DNA of 64,000 nucleotides from Arthrobacter sp. PsM3. GTDB lineage: Bacteria; Actinomycetota; Actinomycetes; Actinomycetales; Micrococcaceae. The notes under the pieces were generated by a model, which worked only from the letters and a program-made list of their open reading frames with translations, did no database searches and had not been told where the DNA came from. The stretch spans positions 62,001 to 126,000 of the forward strand of contig NZ_JARUXE010000011.1 of the NCBI RefSeq assembly GCF_030433895.1. Direction: 5' to 3'. The position numbers were made by a program, and so were the translations under genes. Positions 1,347 through 9,003 of the stretch are shown here, piece after piece. Within the stretch, counting starts at the first letter, position 1; each line of letters starts with the position of its first letter.

Positions 1347-2027
1347 ATGAAACAGGACGATGGCAAGAACCCGAATGGACTGGAGTCAGTCCTGGAGCTG
1401 CGGGTGCTTCTTGTAGACAGTCATCCGGAGATCTGGCGTCAGCTGGAGGTCCGAGGCTCAACATCGCTGGATCAGGTACACGCGGTCCTGCAGGTGGCCT
1501 TTGGCTGGGAGGATGCCCATCTGCACCGCTTTACCGACAGCGATCCCTTCGCGCCACTGCGGCCGATTGATGGGGAGCTACCTGAAGCATTGCAGTGGCT
1601 CCCGACGCAGTGGTGCGAGGAACCGGGGGACAGGGCTGAGGAGGATTGCTCGTTGGATCAACTTTTGGCGAGCGGATTGGGGACAGCGTTCTATGAGTAC
1701 GATTTCGGCGACAGCTGGCTCCACCGGATCGAACTGATTTCCAGCCGGCCAGCGACGAAGAATTCCCCGTCGGCGCTTCTGCTCGGCGGTGCCCGGCGAG
1801 GCCCGCTTGAAGACTCCGGAGGCATGCCCGGGTTCGAGGAGATTCTGGACGCCCTGGCCGACCCTGCCCATGCTGAACACGTTGAACAATCGGCGTGGGT
1901 CACCGAGATTACCGGCGCCCAAGAGCCCTTTGATCCCGGCTTCCTGGACCTCGAGGCCGTAAACGAGGAGCTTATTCTGGTCCTGCAAAGCCGACCTGGC
2001 CCAACCCCCAAACCTGATCGGGCCTGA
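1347..2027 (+). CDS. plasmid pRiA4b ORF-3 family protein
   Basis: A 226-residue protein with the hallmarks of the pRiA4b ORF-3-like family: an early LELRVLLVDSHPEIWRQLEV strand-helix, the segment LQVAFGWEDAHLHRF, and YEYDFGDSWLHRIEL about 120 residues in. The family is widespread on plasmids and islands, and its biochemical role is not established. The ATG at 1347 is preceded by a short spacer after the tandem repeat. It stands alone between two oppositely oriented genes. Confidence in the family is high; no function can be given. Confidence 0.85.
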   Translation: MKQDDGKNPNGLESVLELRVLLVDSHPEIWRQLEVRGSTSLDQVHAVLQVAFGWEDAHLHRFTDSDPFAPLRPIDGELPEALQWLPTQWCEEPGDRAEEDCSLDQLLASGLGTAFYEYDFGDSWLHRIELISSRPATKNSPSALLLGGARRGPLEDSGGMPGFEEILDALADPAHAEHVEQSAWVTEITGAQEPFDPGFLDLEAVNEELILVLQSRPGPTPKPDRA

Positions 2028-3021: not shown

Positions 3022-3133
3022 GCCACCATCACCACCTACTAACCGGTGCAGTCATTGTGGCCCGAAGACCAGACGTTAGCCAGACCGGCAGGAGGGCATT
3101 TGTTAGACATGTCCCTGTCCGGTTGGTATCTCT

Positions 3134-3149
3134 TGTAACAGTCGTTACA
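3134..3149. promoter_or_regulatory. operator-like dyad upstream of the chrB-like gene
   Basis: TGTAAC-AGTC-GTTACA is a perfect 6-bp inverted repeat ending four bases before the ATG at 3153. Its position would let a bound repressor block initiation of the ChrB-like/MFS pair. The family of the binding protein cannot be told from the site alone. Confidence 0.5.
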
Positions 3150-3152
3150 GTC

Positions 3153-3701
3153 ATGAATGTGACTAACGAATCGAATGCGCCCTGGCTCGTCATGCTCGTC
3201 CAGGTTCCCTCTCAACCTTCCAGATACCGGGTAGCTGTCTGGAGGGAGCTTCGCCGGTTCGGCGCGGTTCCCGTGGGGCAAGGTGCGTGGACTGCCCCGG
3301 ACGTCCCGGTGTGCAGGATGGGCGCCGAAAAGGCGCAAGTGCTTGCCCTGGCCGGCGGTGGAACGCTGGTCTTGCTGACGACCAACGCCGACGACGCCGG
3401 TGCTGTCGAGCTCCGCCGGCTTTTCGATGCCGCCAGGGCCGATGAATGGGTTGAGTTCATCGCAGACTGCGGCAAGTTCACGGCGGAAATCGCCAAGGAA
3501 ATCGAGAAGCGCAAATTCACCCTCGCCGAGTTGGACGAAGAGGAACAGAGCCTGGAACGGCTGCGCAGGTGGTTCCGGGCCAACCGGGACAAGGGCGTCT
3601 TCGGCAGCCCGTTGGCCGATGAAGCAGAGACTGAACTGTCCCAGTGCGCGAGGGTTCTCGAGGAATTCTCAGAACTCGTCTACCGCGAGGTGCACCAGTG
3701 A
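3153..3701 (+). CDS. ChrB N-terminal domain protein (chromate resistance-type regulator)
   Basis: 182 residues starting at the ATG at 3153; earlier in-frame starts would run through the dyad upstream. The sequence APWLVMLVQVPSQPSRYRVAVWRELRRFGAVPVGQGAWTAP, written here in part, is the signature opening of the ChrB N-terminal domain, and the Glu/Lys-rich helix near residues 105-140 (KEIEKRKFTLAELDEEE) also fits. Full ChrB proteins carry a second, C-terminal domain that is absent here. ChrB acts as a chromate-responsive regulator in chromate operons. The downstream MFS gene overlaps its stop codon (GTGA), so the two are translationally coupled. No chrA chromate pump is visible. Confidence 0.8.
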   Translation: MNVTNESNAPWLVMLVQVPSQPSRYRVAVWRELRRFGAVPVGQGAWTAPDVPVCRMGAEKAQVLALAGGGTLVLLTTNADDAGAVELRRLFDAARADEWVEFIADCGKFTAEIAKEIEKRKFTLAELDEEEQSLERLRRWFRANRDKGVFGSPLADEAETELSQCARVLEEFSELVYREVHQ

Positions 3702-5442: not shown

Positions 5443-6351
5443 TCATTGTGGCGAGTACCTAGTTAGTGGCACTGGTTCAAACTGACGATACCGCGTTACG
5501 GGGCAATCGGGCAGAAGTTCAATTACCGGCTGTTGAGCTGTGAGTCCAACTTGGCTTCCGGCGTCTCGAATTAGATCGTTCACCATCTCCCACCAATCCC
5601 GAACTGCATCAGTTGGCTGCTCGTGGCAGAAAGCGGCGAGCTGGATGAAAGACGGGTCAAGCATGCTATTAGAACGGCCCCCGATTTCTTCAATCTGGTT
5701 TACGACAGCGTCATATCTGCTCTTGTCTGAAGCTTTGAGGCTCTTCAACTCGGTCATGAGGACACGCTGCACCACTTCAACAACCGCATCCGCCCAAGAG
5801 GGTCGACAACGGAGTAGTTCCAGTCTCCTGACGACAGATCGCTGGTCGCGCTCGTTTGCGAAGCCGGCAATTGGTGTTCTGCCTACGAGCCAGGACTTTT
5901 CCACCGGGAATTCAATGCGCAGGTCGACAACCCAAAGCTCCGTCGCGTCTCCTCCAAGCTTAGGAAGGTGAAGAAGGTGAAGCGGGCCTTTACCCTTCTT
6001 GATGAGGGCTCTGGTGGAACCGTCCAGATTGATCATGTTGTACGCGGGTGAGATGGATATCCACGGCCGTGTGGGCGGGTCGAAGTCGACTTCTCCCAGA
6101 TCACACGTCTGTGTGGTTATAACGCCATAGGCGGGCGCCACATGATTCGCCAAAATGACTTCTGGACCCGCCGAGTCTTGGACGTAGTTGTGGGTCGCCG
6201 CCCAGACTGCGTATTTTGGGTTTGCGAAGTAGAAAAATGGCGGAGTTTCCACCACGTCGCCAGCTGTAAAACTAGCAGCCGCCGTCAGAACTTCTGACGG
6301 CCAATCTTGGCGTTCGCCAGGGAGGCCTGCAGTAATGTCAGGGACCGACAT
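5443..6351 (-). CDS. hypothetical protein with TQTCDL motif (cassette gene 3)
   Basis: 302 residues, ATG at 6351 preceded by GGAGG at good spacing. No signal peptide or membrane span. A central AYGVITTQTCDLGEVDF segment at about residues 74-90 is the most distinctive feature; the Cys may be functional. Aromatic residues cluster around PPFFYFANPKYAVWAATHNY. The second half is helical and charged, with paired Trp (DWWEMVNDLI). I do not recognise the family. It is the third of three co-directional genes with an 80-bp gap to the gene upstream, and looks less GC-rich than the flanking catabolic genes, consistent with acquisition as a unit. Confidence 0.65.
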   Translation of the reverse strand: MSVPDITAGLPGERQDWPSEVLTAAASFTAGDVVETPPFFYFANPKYAVWAATHNYVQDSAGPEVILANHVAPAYGVITTQTCDLGEVDFDPPTRPWISISPAYNMINLDGSTRALIKKGKGPLHLLHLPKLGGDATELWVVDLRIEFPVEKSWLVGRTPIAGFANERDQRSVVRRLELLRCRPSWADAVVEVVQRVLMTELKSLKASDKSRYDAVVNQIEEIGGRSNSMLDPSFIQLAAFCHEQPTDAVRDWWEMVNDLIRDAGSQVGLTAQQPVIELLPDCPVTRYRQFEPVPLTRYSPQ

Positions 6352-6430
6352 CCGCGGGCGCCTCCAAAAGTAGTTAGTTGTACAAACCAGAGTATGTTGT
6401 CGAGTCGCGGCAATTCAGCCGGACGTCAGC

Positions 6431-7291
6431 TCAGGTGTTTCTAGGTCGGACCGGCCGTGCTACAAATCCAGCTGCCGGGCTTTGATGTGCCTTCTGCGTG
6501 CTGGCATCAAATGGTGGCTCGCCGTACGCGTCCAGGTCATCGTCGTCGACGAGCTTTTTCGCCGGCGCCGAGGCTGGGAACAGTAGCGGCTCGGCCAAGG
6601 TGAGAACATTCCGGAGCCCATCGGCGCCTTGAGATAGTCGCGCGAGGCGGTCAGTGCCCTCATCCGAGCTCATGGCGAGCCACAGGCGCGTCCTCTCCAC
6701 GCCTTGGGCGGCGACAAGCTGGGATACGAAGGCATGCACGGCAAGCAGATGCCGCGAAGAAGCGCCATAGGCTCCTCCTGCATTTCGCCAATTGCCGAGC
6801 GTTCTCCTAGAAATATTGCATAGCTGAGCAACCTGGGTATCGGTGAGTTGCAGCCACTCGCCAAGGTCATCCACAGCGGATACCGAGGCGGCAGCCACGC
6901 GCCGGTCCCGCTCGGCACGCACTGATTCAATCGATTCAGAGTTCCGAGCCCTTGAGGTGCTCTCTATCCCCGGGGTTTCCACTCTTGTAAGGGCCGACGT
7001 GCCGGAGGCAATCAACGTCGGCAAATAGTCCGCCCCCGTTTTGACAACTCTCGTTTCGGTCGGGCGTCCCACCTCAGGTGCTGCAAAGACGGGAGTAGAC
7101 GGAACGACGGCTAGGCTCAAGGCCGCCGCTGCTATGGTCATTCCAGTCCATGCCCGCGTCCAATTTGCGGGCGGATATTCGCCGAGAAAATTAACACCCG
7201 GATCCTTGTAGAACGGCGTGATGTCAGCGGCGCTATAGTACGTGCCACCGGCTGCGTATCTGTCTAACGTAGAGCCACTTAGATCAGCCAT
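6431..7291 (-). CDS. membrane-anchored helix-turn-helix protein (cassette gene 2)
   Basis: 286 residues. Residues about 43-72 (NWTRAWTGMTIAAAALSLAVVPSTPVFA, in part) form a single hydrophobic span. A linker follows, then from about residue 140 a segment LQLTDTQVAQLCNISRRTLG reads as a helix-turn-helix resembling the N-terminal domain of Xre/MbcA/ParS-type antitoxins, continued by a helical region ending LAEPLLFP. A DNA-binding-like domain behind a membrane anchor is unusual for this family and suggests signal transduction or membrane tethering. The ATG at 7291 has a GGGGA a few bases upstream. It sits 37 bp after the TIGR04255-like gene. Function is unknown. Confidence 0.65.
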   Translation of the reverse strand: MADLSGSTLDRYAAGGTYYSAADITPFYKDPGVNFLGEYPPANWTRAWTGMTIAAAALSLAVVPSTPVFAAPEVGRPTETRVVKTGADYLPTLIASGTSALTRVETPGIESTSRARNSESIESVRAERDRRVAAASVSAVDDLGEWLQLTDTQVAQLCNISRRTLGNWRNAGGAYGASSRHLLAVHAFVSQLVAAQGVERTRLWLAMSSDEGTDRLARLSQGADGLRNVLTLAEPLLFPASAPAKKLVDDDDLDAYGEPPFDASTQKAHQSPAAGFVARPVRPRNT

Positions 7292-7328
7292 CTTGTCCCC
7301 ATTTTTCTCGTGACTGCATAAACTGACG

Positions 7329-8129
7329 CTAACTCTTTAGAGATTCAAGCAATTCCGGTTTCACCACGGCCTGGAACACCTGTAGGGCTCGACGATGAAG
7401 TTTTTGAGCCGTTTGCTTGATATCCAGGACGTCGAAGGCTCGGGCACGCCCGTCAAAGCAATCCGTGTCCAAGACCGTAGCGTATCCGTTTGCCGCGGCA
7501 GGATCAGGCGTACAACTGCTTCGCAGAACGACCTGGGCGTCGCCGAGGTCCAGGTGCGAAAAAGTCTGCGCACCGATGACGGATTCCATGAGGTCGGGGT
7601 TGGCAGCCAGCCCCAGCAGGCTTGGCTCCAGGAGATCAACCCAGTGGCCAGGCTTGGAAGCCTGCCGATAGACGATGCGGTCTATATATCGAAGGCCGAT
7701 CCGCTGGATGAGCGCCGGCTGATATGCCGAGTGGATGACTTCGACGAGGTCCTCAAGACGCGAATTGAACTCGGTCCATGTCGTATAACCTGTGGACTCG
7801 AGCGCAAAAAAATCGGGCATGAGGATGACGGTCCACTGGTGGTCCTTCGAGCGCAAGCGCCACCCGGGGCGCACCTCGCCGCCGGAAGTCTGAAACCCTG
7901 ACGGTCCAGCCTCGACCACCATCTCGGCCGCGGATGCCTGCTCAAGAGTCGGATAGTCGTGTCGAATGTCATTCTGAATTCGAAGCGCGATGGCGGGGTC
8001 ACTCACCGCGGGGCGTCCTTCGTGTCGTCCTTGAAAGACGACTAATTCCAGAGGTGAAGCCCCTAACGTCTCTGTCGATGGCTCCGGAAGTTCCACTATG
8101 GTCGCGAGATCCTTCTTGTTCTTGTCCAC
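7329..8129 (-). CDS. TIGR04255-type protein (cassette gene 1)
   Basis: 266 residues from a GTG at 8129. The opening LGASPLELVVFQGRHEG, the middle VILMPDFFALESTGYTTW, and LIQRIGLRYIDRI at about residues 140-152 match the layout of the sporadically distributed TIGR04255 family (PL-x-EVVF start, YT-x-W, RIGLRYIN). The family is patchy across bacteria and its activity is unknown. There is no membrane segment. It is the first of three genes on this strand, and the partner with a membrane-anchored HTH starts 37 bp downstream. The family call rests on reading motifs only. Confidence 0.7.
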   Translation of the reverse strand: MDKNKKDLATIVELPEPSTETLGASPLELVVFQGRHEGRPAVSDPAIALRIQNDIRHDYPTLEQASAAEMVVEAGPSGFQTSGGEVRPGWRLRSKDHQWTVILMPDFFALESTGYTTWTEFNSRLEDLVEVIHSAYQPALIQRIGLRYIDRIVYRQASKPGHWVDLLEPSLLGLAANPDLMESVIGAQTFSHLDLGDAQVVLRSSCTPDPAAANGYATVLDTDCFDGRARAFDVLDIKQTAQKLHRRALQVFQAVVKPELLESLKS

Positions 8130-8480
8130 GGTCGAGTGTAAGCCTTTGAGTAACTGCTGGGCAAGTTGTGAGCAAGTTCGTTTTTGAGGAATTGCCTCAG
8201 TACCCTGCTCGACCCCATCGAACCCACGAACAGCTGGGCCGTCATTTCCCGCTCGCCAACCGCCCCACCGCGAAAGCGAGTCCTATGGGGGGGGCCTTCA
8301 AGACGGCTGCTACTCATCTCCTCGTTAAGCTCTGGAACGTGGAGTTGCGAGTAAGCCTGTGCACGGTGAATCAGTCGATGAATTGTCCTATCATACTGAC
8401 AACACGACATAAGATCCATTATCGGTGACTCAGAATGTGATCTGATAGGGGGTTTAGGCCTTGATCCGGCCCGGGTTTGC
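8130..8480. other. intergenic region between the cassette and the ParS-like gene
   Basis: 351 bp shared by two divergent genes. It contains a run of eight G at 8287-8294 and a 7-bp inverted repeat (CCTATCA at 8387-8393, TGATAGG at 8443-8449) that brackets an AT-richer stretch likely to hold the promoter of the gene at 8481. No gene is supported here. Confidence 0.5.
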
Positions 8481-8888
8481 ATGCGACCATCAAGCGTGAC
8501 AGCAGTGACAGTCGCCCGCGGCGGGCTGAAAGCCCACCAGGACTCCATCCGGCTTTCCGACGCTGACCTGGTTCGTGACTTGAGAGATCTGCTCGGCGCA
8601 AAGCTCGTCGCCCACATCGGCTCCGTGAAGGAAACCCGCGCCGTCCGGCAGTGGGCCGATGCAGAGCGCAAACCCTCCGCCGACGTGATTCAGAGGCTCC
8701 GCACGGCGTACCACGTGGCTGCCCTGCTGGCCGAGGGTGATTCCCGGGCCGTCGTGCAGGCCTGGTTCCAGGGGATGAATCCGCAGCTTGATGATGTCCC
8801 CCCTGCCCGACTGCTCCGCGAAGGTCAGCTGGACGACGCGGGCCCGCTGGTCCTGGCCGCCGCCCGCGCTTTCGCGGAGGCGAGCTGA
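8481..8888 (+). CDS. Xre/MbcA/ParS-like antitoxin domain protein, orphan
   Basis: 135 residues. DLRDLLGAKLVAHIGSVKET at about residues 32-51, RQWADAERKPS and VIQRLRTAYHVAALL form the helix-turn-helix plus helical extension of Xre/MbcA/ParS-type proteins, followed by AWFQGMNPQLDDVPP, which resembles the C-terminal toxin-binding segment of that family. Such proteins normally pair with a RES-domain toxin (NAD-degrading), but the next gene is a P450 on the other strand, so no toxin partner is visible. It is divergent from the three-gene cassette whose middle protein has a related domain. It may be a solitary regulator. Confidence 0.7.
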   Translation: MRPSSVTAVTVARGGLKAHQDSIRLSDADLVRDLRDLLGAKLVAHIGSVKETRAVRQWADAERKPSADVIQRLRTAYHVAALLAEGDSRAVVQAWFQGMNPQLDDVPPARLLREGQLDDAGPLVLAAARAFAEAS

Positions 8889-9003
8889 CCGGCGGCTCCT
8901 GCACAACTGACCGCGGACGAGGCCGCGGGAAGAGTCGGCCGTGTCGGATTCCGCCCGGACCCTTGGGCTTTGGAGCGGCTGGGCATGGGCCCCCGACGGC
9001 CGC

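What the first reader, a model, noticed from the sequence alone, without database searches (positions are those of the whole stretch)
5443..8129. Three-gene cassette of unknown function: TIGR04255-type protein, membrane-anchored HTH protein and TQTCDL protein
Seen: three close co-directional genes (gaps of 37 and 80 bp) between an IS21 relic and a ParS-like gene, with sequence that looks less GC-rich than the flanks. Known: TIGR04255 is a patchy family of unknown role. Inference: patchy distribution, island location and a membrane protein carrying a DNA-binding-like domain suggest a sensing or defence module moved as a unit. This is the strongest candidate in the window for an undescribed system.
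Basis: partly seen in the sequence, partly recalled or inferred. Interest (0 to 1): 0.75.

Follow-up and report, generated by a model that had tools for sequence, protein, structure and literature searches.

The report
Three-gene toxin-like module with swappable effectors
Three neighbouring genes of unknown role travel together between bacteria and look like a toxin, its controller and a third partner; the third partner is shared by a wider family of gene sets in which the toxin-like gene has been exchanged for other kinds, which makes a possible new family of bacterial self-poisoning or virus-defence switches testable.

Summary
The trio is real: three minus-strand genes at the window's GC minimum, patchy in its genus (2 of 81 sampled genomes, the other copy only 33% and 22% identical), and in Pseudarthrobacter sp. 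Fe7 with DNA similarity confined to the trio plus about 50 bp upstream and purifying selection on each gene. Order of transcription: TIGR04255, HTH protein, QTCD protein. The order recurs on plasmids and in contigs of many phyla, so the unit is not accidental. The QTCD protein is predicted to have a MazF/CcdB toxin fold plus an extra domain, without profile kinship to MazF; Cys-Asp is invariant in the rows aligned. Across 125 TIGR04255 loci the same gene heads sets whose third gene is QTCD/QHPC, HEPN-, HNH- or PIN-like, with several exchanges on the TIGR04255 tree. QTCD also occurs in two-gene pairs without TIGR04255. I read it as a three-part toxin-antitoxin-like system with TIGR04255 as constant partner; it works like toxin-antitoxin-chaperone modules but is not a member (no SecB match by sequence). 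Toxicity, antitoxin role, trigger and phage defence are inferred. The "membrane anchor" is one hydrophobic stretch that most relatives examined lack. No paper in the searched library contains the word TIGR04255.

The parts
7329..8129 (-). Gene 1: TIGR04255 family protein, 266 aa; predicted two-fold beta-saddle; constant component
   Evidence: NCBIfam TIGR04255.1 150.5 bits, E 7e-44; AlphaFold2 pLDDT 93.3, pTM 0.88
7686..7703 (-). RxGLRY motif of gene 1 (residues 143-148); Arg143, Gly145 and Arg147 invariant
   Evidence: 20 of 20 rows found without a motif pattern; 45 of 45 in A7, but those loci were fetched with patterns of which one is this motif
7461..7469 (-). DxD of gene 1 (Asp221, Asp223), invariant
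   Evidence: 20 of 20, 45 of 45
6431..7291 (-). Gene 2: HTH protein, 286 aa; proposed antitoxin/autorepressor with a fast-evolving N-terminal region
   Evidence: Pfam PF20432 E 1.6e-5, just under cut-off; first 130 aligned residues 45% and the rest 70% identical to Fe7
6677..6874 (-). HTH region of gene 2 (residues 140-205)
   Evidence: 66-column model built here partly from this protein, E 7e-23; 34 of 46 QTCD-type and 11 of 11 QHPC-type middle proteins match
7085..7135 (-). Hydrophobic stretch of gene 2 (residues 53-69)
   Evidence: not general in the family
5443..6351 (-). Gene 3: QTCD protein, 302 aa; proposed toxin/effector
   Evidence: AlphaFold2 pLDDT 82.6, pTM 0.64; MazF/CcdB fold
5797..6297 (-). 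MazF/CcdB-like domain of gene 3 (about residues 19-185)
   Evidence: VIA-align Z 9.0, rmsd 2.8, 100 residues (27-183) to MazF-mt3 5hk3_B; other rows span 19-185
6097..6114 (-). TQTCDL motif (residues 80-85); Cys83 and Asp84 invariant
   Evidence: 24 of 24 rows with a letter there, of 25 rows
5464..5796 (-). C-terminal domain of gene 3 (residues 186-296)
   Evidence: One listed match: VIA-align Z 8.6, rmsd 3.7, 94 residues to 8hhj_A, near background; absent from the short QTCD proteins
8130..8178 (-). Upstream segment conserved with Fe7: ACAACTTGCCCAG (8157-8169) and TACACT (8135-8140), five bases before the GTG start; proposed promoter of a leaderless transcript
   Evidence: the consensus promoter scan found none, so promoter and leaderless start are inference

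Best explanation
The trio is a mobile, three-part toxin-antitoxin-like module. Gene 3 (QTCD) is the toxin: a MazF/CcdB-fold domain with an invariant Cys-Asp motif that, when free, stops growth by attacking RNA or another essential target. Gene 2 (HTH) is its cognate antitoxin and the operon's repressor. Gene 1 (TIGR04255) is the constant third partner: it binds the variable part of gene 2 (and so the toxin complex), keeps the toxin silent, and lets go when it meets a trigger, for example a phage product. In the wider family TIGR04255 is kept while the pair 'middle gene plus toxin' is exchanged (QTCD/QHPC, HEPN, HNH, PIN). Shown by computation: the unit, its conservation, the gene order, the predicted fold of gene 3, the exchange of third genes. 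Inferred: toxicity, antitoxin role, repression, the binding and trigger role of TIGR04255, and phage defence.
For: Same three-gene order in distant bacteria and plasmids; 11 of 15 QTCD-positive genomes among 396 actinobacterial ones have it beside TIGR04255, which itself occurs in 31 of 396. DNA similarity to Fe7 ends at the trio's borders and all three genes are under purifying selection. Gene 3 model: Foldseek's first 32 rows are MazF or CcdB chains (best E 0.018, probability 1.0), VIA-align Z 9.0. Third genes of sister operons: HEPN over the Pfam cut-off in 2 of 4 proteins scanned (25.1 and 29.9 bits against 22), HNH in 2 of 2 (21.9 over and 20.8 just under 21.4), PIN in 1 of 2 just under cut-off (23.2 against 23.6). 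TIGR04255 tree of 88 rows: HEPN, HNH, PIN and QHPC each one group, short QTCD in at least 3 places by starred branches, 8 label changes in all. QTCD also occurs as an overlapping two-gene pair with a MerR/HTH_17-like gene and no TIGR04255 in 3 of the 4 exceptions. The middle gene changes family with the third gene: HTH in 34/46 QTCD and 11/11 QHPC, 0/16 HEPN, 0/8 HNH, 0/4 PIN, as expected of a cognate antitoxin.
Against: No experiment. Gene 3 has no profile kinship with MazF/PemK (hhalign E 0.57), a shared fold does not show toxicity, no Foldseek E-value is below 0.001, and Z 9 stands only modestly above the best Z of 7-8 that the tool quotes as background. Several nuclease assignments are weak: 2 of 4 HEPN-type and 1 of 2 PIN-type proteins had no such Pfam match, and the HEPN-like proteins mostly carry RNxxDY-type motifs where a canonical HEPN has RxxxxH (canonical motif recalled). 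TIGR04255 has no SecB match by sequence and its fold is not clearly assigned. The HTH/C-domain coupling rests on one or two independent events. 34 of 125 TIGR04255 loci have another or no recognised third gene. No PADLOC model fits and the neighbour scan did not favour defence.
Confidence: 0.58

Rival explanations
1. A classical two-gene toxin-antitoxin pair (genes 2 and 3) beside an independent TIGR04255 gene that does something else, such as an enzyme or a nucleic-acid-binding regulator.
For: Two-gene QTCD pairs without TIGR04255 exist (L158-L160); TIGR04255 has conserved Arg and Asp residues as an enzyme might, and its nearest solved folds are guanidino kinases at Z 8.5, near background.
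Against: TIGR04255 stays in front, often overlapping the next start, through exchanges of the whole following pair.
Confidence: 0.17
2. Polarity reversed: TIGR04255 is the active effector and gene 3 is a regulator or immunity-like protein that has a MazF/CcdB fold but no activity.
For: TIGR04255 has invariant polar residues; gene 3 lacks MazF profile similarity.
Against: Third genes in sister operons resemble nuclease families (HEPN, HNH, PIN), and what is exchanged is usually the effector; QTCD persists without TIGR04255.
Confidence: 0.1
3. One reading: a membrane-anchored HTH sensor with two accessory proteins that switches genes on under stress, with no toxin.
For: HTH in gene 2 and a hydrophobic stretch in the window's copy and some relatives.
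Against: The hydrophobic stretch is not general (6 of 43 reach 1.6) and no HTH was found in the middle genes of the short QTCD modules or of the HEPN, HNH and PIN forms; third genes are nuclease-like.
Confidence: 0.08

Closest known systems
Toxin-antitoxin-chaperone (TAC) modules, incl. CmdTAC (PMC11618068 and PMC5105189, passages seen by term search)
   Same: Three genes; one constant partner kept with different toxin-antitoxin pairs; the antitoxins carry extensions without significant similarity between systems.
   Different: The constant partner there is SecB-like; TIGR04255 has no SecB match in Pfam at E<=1. Here TIGR04255 comes first in the operon. No addiction extension or trigger shown here.
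MazF/PemK and CcdB toxins
   Same: Predicted fold of about residues 19-185 of gene 3.
   Different: No profile similarity to PemK proteins of relatives; conserved QxCD motif and Arg183; an added C-terminal domain.
Xre antitoxins of RES/Xre systems
   Same: HTH of gene 2 comes closest to Xre-like-HTH PF20432 and more weakly to NF049845.
   Different: Below cut-off in both; long variable N-terminal region; the third gene did not match a RES family in the Pfam or NCBIfam scans.
Hyperpromiscuous antitoxin networks (PMC10440598, search listing and start of abstract only)
   Same: One conserved partner combined with unrelated toxins (in part recalled).
   Different: Here, as proposed, the conserved partner is a third protein and a pair is exchanged.

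Membership tests
TIGR04255 | Match to the curated model over its cut-off | tested here: met
   150.5 bits against 30, residues 25-265 on model 5-252
MazF/PemK toxins | MazF/CcdB fold | tested here: met
   Z 9.0, rmsd 2.8, 100 of 103 residues; top Foldseek rows; a predicted model, so fold level only
MazF/PemK toxins | Sequence or profile kinship (Pfam PF02452) | tested here: not met
   PF02452 matched none of 25 QTCD proteins at E<=0.1; the only matches were two unrelated families, one protein each, E 0.07 and 0.09; hhalign E 0.57 and 0.45 against PemK proteins of relatives
MazF/PemK toxins | Growth arrest by RNA cleavage | not testable with these tools
   Needs expression and RNA mapping
Toxin-antitoxin-chaperone (TAC) | Three-gene operon of toxin, antitoxin and a constant partner | tested here: inconclusive
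   Three-gene architecture and exchange of the following pair are seen; the toxin and antitoxin roles are inferred
Toxin-antitoxin-chaperone (TAC) | Partner is SecB-like by sequence | tested here: not met
   No Pfam family at E<=1 for gene 1
Toxin-antitoxin-chaperone (TAC) | Partner has SecB fold | tested here: inconclusive
   SecB not among the listed fold matches, which excludes nothing
Toxin-antitoxin-chaperone (TAC) | Antitoxin extension that makes it depend on the partner | tested here: inconclusive
   Gene 2 has a fast-evolving N-terminal region; hydrophobicity is not above shuffles in the family
RES/Xre antitoxin | Xre-like HTH over cut-off | tested here: inconclusive
   25.6 bits against 25.8; NF049845 15.2 against 90
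Known anti-phage system (PADLOC 2.0.0) | Match of a component to a PADLOC model | tested here: not met
   Trio at E<=1: only mad1 at E 0.024 on gene 2; 0 of 45 TIGR04255 proteins at E<=0.001
Anti-phage defence in general | Protection against phage | not testable with these tools
   Needs plaque assays

The most novel reading that the evidence does not exclude
TIGR04255 marks an undescribed class of polymorphic toxin or defence systems found in bacteria and archaea. A conserved beta-saddle protein acts as hub and infection sensor that licenses interchangeable effectors (a new Cys-Asp family with MazF/CcdB fold, HEPN, HNH, PIN), each with its own adaptor or antitoxin, much as SecB-like chaperones do in TAC systems but with an unrelated protein.
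Probability: 0.35. Interest if true: 0.86.

Novelty: new variant of a known kind. Interest (0 to 1): 0.7.

Why it matters
TIGR04255 is a named family of unknown function. If the reading holds, tests on one operon would assign a role to a family found here in 31 of 396 sampled actinobacterial genomes and in contigs of many phyla, add a toxin family with an unusual invariant Cys-Asp motif, and show that three-part control of toxins arose with unrelated third partners.

Tried and rejected
SecB-like fold for TIGR04255: I expected it from the strand order; SecB does not appear in the fold lists and Pfam finds nothing, so I dropped it as a claim. Fold matches of TIGR04255 to guanidino kinases (Z 8.5) and TBP (Z about 7; viral TBP homologues E 4e-6 with TM-score 0.25) are near background; no function is drawn from them.

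Hydrophobic 'addiction' segment shared by the middle proteins: tested and not found, although the window's copy has one.

Coupling of HTH in gene 2 with the C-terminal domain of gene 3: 30 of 30 HTH-positive and 0 of 10 HTH-negative loci have the domain, after leaving out of 46 three duplicates (L091, L097, L143), two proteins cut by contig ends (L123, L058) and one partial (L105); L092 (gene in two frames, counted as long) and L046 (internal stop, counted as short) are kept. On the tree this is 2 changes and at most 2 independent pairs, so it is only suggestive. Among loci without TIGR04255 the rule does not hold in the same way (L158 is long, L159 and L160 short, each with a MerR-like HTH gene).

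Defence-island test: 100 of 101 neighbour ORFs (200 to 900 aa) from L042-L074 against 100 of 117 control ORFs from 20 stretches of 12 of the same genomes, PADLOC at E<=1e-10: 41 against 83 families; the tool gives no count of proteins with any match, and broad models may inflate the control. Inconclusive, and not in favour.

tblastx of the window against the Fe7 locus also listed short pieces of 13-71 residues outside the trio (first 40 lines seen); blastn at E<=1e-5 shows none there, and I take them for noise.

Operator search upstream: no inverted repeat of 7 or more within 30 bp in the window or Fe7; consensus promoter scan 0 found. E. coli genomes: no match to the Klebsiella plasmid operon. 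QTCD in viral contigs: 12 stretches matched the pattern, none confirmed. Known phage records: 3 partial TIGR04255 matches, 30-50% of the query. QTCD and HTH proteins of the window against plasmids: no match. The first PemK alignment picked wrong ORFs; redone with 9 of 30 proteins (one of these, L167, is still a wrong frame) and with all 30; neither matched.

Empty site: in relatives the left and right flanks match at separate places, so no simple empty site was shown.
Full report
What is there. Three minus-strand genes occupy 5443-8129: TIGR04255 (7329-8129), an HTH protein (6431-7291) and a protein with TQTCDL (5443-6351), separated by 37 and 79 bp. The stretch has 57.5% GC against 64.8% for the window and is the GC minimum at its size. 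TIGR04255 is a clear member of its family. The HTH is closest to the Xre-like antitoxin HTH but just below the cut-off. The third protein has no family.

It is a unit. In Pseudarthrobacter sp. Fe7 (L088) DNA similarity to the window runs from 5450 to 8178, that is the trio plus about 50 bp upstream, with a gap over the N-terminal part of the HTH gene (6914-7204); blastn at E<=1e-5 shows nothing else between the 64-kb window and the 16.8 kb held around Fe7's copy. Protein identities are 75, 59 and 73%, dN 0.18, 0.33 and 0.18, dS 1.53, 3.05 and saturated.

It is patchy in its genus. By protein, TIGR04255 occurs in 2 of 81 genomes searched (the window's own and G625, 33% identical) and the QTCD protein in 3 of 81 (own; G625, 22% identical, 800 bp downstream of its TIGR04255; and a weak match over 55 residues in G660). 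The middle gene of G625 was not read. The copy in G625 is far more distant than Fe7's, which fits separate arrivals. In 198 genomes of the order only the window's own has a match to gene 3.

It recurs elsewhere. tblastn of TIGR04255 found 17 plasmid records. In the 9 I opened the QTCD family follows in 7: Chroococcidiopsis, Kocuria, Paenarthrobacter, Sinorhizobium, Vibrio, Sphingomonas, Klebsiella; it was not found in one Rhizobium plasmid, nor in a Rhodococcus plasmid where transposases follow the HTH gene. In 396 sampled actinobacterial genomes TIGR04255 occurs in 31 and the QTCD family in 15; 11 of these 15 have the two side by side. Of 109 TIGR04255 loci with at least 2 kb downstream, 40 have QTCD on the same strand within 1.5 kb; these loci were fetched by TIGR04255 and include at least three pairs that are the same genome fetched twice.

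The four exceptions are telling. L158, L159 and L160 have a 112-126 aa gene with a MerR/HTH_17-like HTH (over the Pfam cut-off in L159 and L160, below it in L158) overlapping the QTCD gene; L161 has an unknown 219-aa gene and a 117-aa hydrophobic gene in front. None of these four genomes is among the 31 with TIGR04255. So QTCD also lives in a two-gene form that looks like an ordinary toxin-antitoxin pair.

TIGR04255 heads other trios. Clustering of the ORFs downstream of TIGR04255 and the sorting give, of 125 loci: QTCD 46, QHPC 11, HEPN-like 16, HNH 8, PIN-like 4, an unknown family 6, other or none 34. Pfam supports HEPN in two of four proteins scanned (over cut-off; no HEPN match in L044 and L147), HNH in two of two (one over, one just under), PIN in one of two (just under; none in L113). 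QHPC is a divergent branch of QTCD (hhalign probability 92.8%, E 4e-7, 124 columns). The TIGR04255 tree of 88 rows needs 8 label changes; HEPN, HNH, PIN and QHPC are each one group (HEPN with support 94, the others starred), and short QTCD lies in at least three places. This tree is a quick one with 34 weak forks and several long branches, so I rely only on the exchange as such. The middle gene changes with the third gene.

What gene 3 looks like. AlphaFold2 with 25 sequences gave pLDDT 82.6 and pTM 0.64. About residues 19-185 match MazF and CcdB (best Foldseek E 0.018, none below 0.001; VIA-align Z 9.0, rmsd 2.8, 100 aligned), residues 186-296 match one entry, 8hhj_A, at Z 8.6. The paper on that entry (PMC9970974, passages seen) describes a complex of a toxin domain with RNase A fold and an immunity protein that resembles the cytoplasmic domain of a zinc transporter; which of the two chain A is I did not verify. 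Cys83 and Asp84 are invariant in 24 of 24 rows with a letter there, Arg183 in 24 of 25, Gly31 in 23 of 23. There is no profile similarity to PemK/MazF. So it is a MazF/CcdB-fold protein of a separate family, if the model is right.

What TIGR04255 looks like. The model is confident (pLDDT 93.3): a two-fold beta-saddle. Best solved matches are guanidino kinases (Z 8.5, rmsd 3.9, 190 aligned) with TBP near Z 7; the best viral match is an unnamed 202-aa protein, A0A515MGR4, E 8e-9. Tyr115, Arg143, Gly145, Arg147, Asp221, Asp223 and Phe252 are invariant in 20 rows that were found without a motif pattern.

Mechanism. The simplest account of a constant first gene, a middle gene that goes with its third gene, and third genes from toxin folds or nuclease families is a three-part toxin-antitoxin-like system. 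It works like TAC modules: in PMC5105189 (passages seen) SecB-like chaperones act on different antitoxins (HicB, MqsA, HigA) through extensions that show no significant similarity, and in PMC11618068 (passages seen) the phage capsid protein draws the chaperone CmdC off, the antitoxin is degraded and the toxin is freed. For the window's trio the same steps are inference: TIGR04255 would hold the antitoxin, a trigger would draw it off, QTCD would act. TIGR04255 is not a SecB by sequence, so membership in TAC is not claimed.

Against this. Nothing has been tested in cells. The hydrophobic stretch that first suggested a chaperone-binding or membrane role is not a general feature. Defence association was not shown. 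Some nuclease assignments are weak. A share of TIGR04255 loci does not fit any of the recognised forms (34 of 125).

Novelty. 'TIGR04255' occurs in none of the 5.39 million papers of the library searched, neither at word start nor anywhere in a word; the library lacks most subscription journals and preprints, and supplementary files were not searched. Three searches for related three-part systems showed no such description in the titles and abstract starts listed. I rate it a new variant of a known kind.

Noticed in passing
   Followed up: partly
window 8461-9002; own contig G000:C22:59196-59736 (outside the window): A second copy (83% identical) of the segment with the so-called ParS-like gene lies on the same contig about 2.3 kb before the window begins, and similar copies occur in other genomes of the genus.
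   Followed up: no
   Followed up: no
   Followed up: partly
L005:1078-4657 (Rhizobium sp. CB3060 plasmid): TIGR04255 lies next to multiubiquitin, ThiF-family and DUF6527 genes, a possible neighbouring conflict system.
   Followed up: no
L043, L069-L073: A further TIGR04255 form with unknown middle and, in five of the six loci, a clustered third protein of about 150 aa, in actinobacteria.
   Followed up: no
L122 (Ethanoperedens), L147 (Methanothrix), L157 (Prometheoarchaeum): TIGR04255 trios occur in contigs binned as archaea; contamination of these assemblies was not checked.
   Followed up: partly
window 1347-2027 and 3057-3701: A pRiA4b ORF-3-like protein and a ChrB N-terminal-domain protein stand to the left of the trio.
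   Followed up: no
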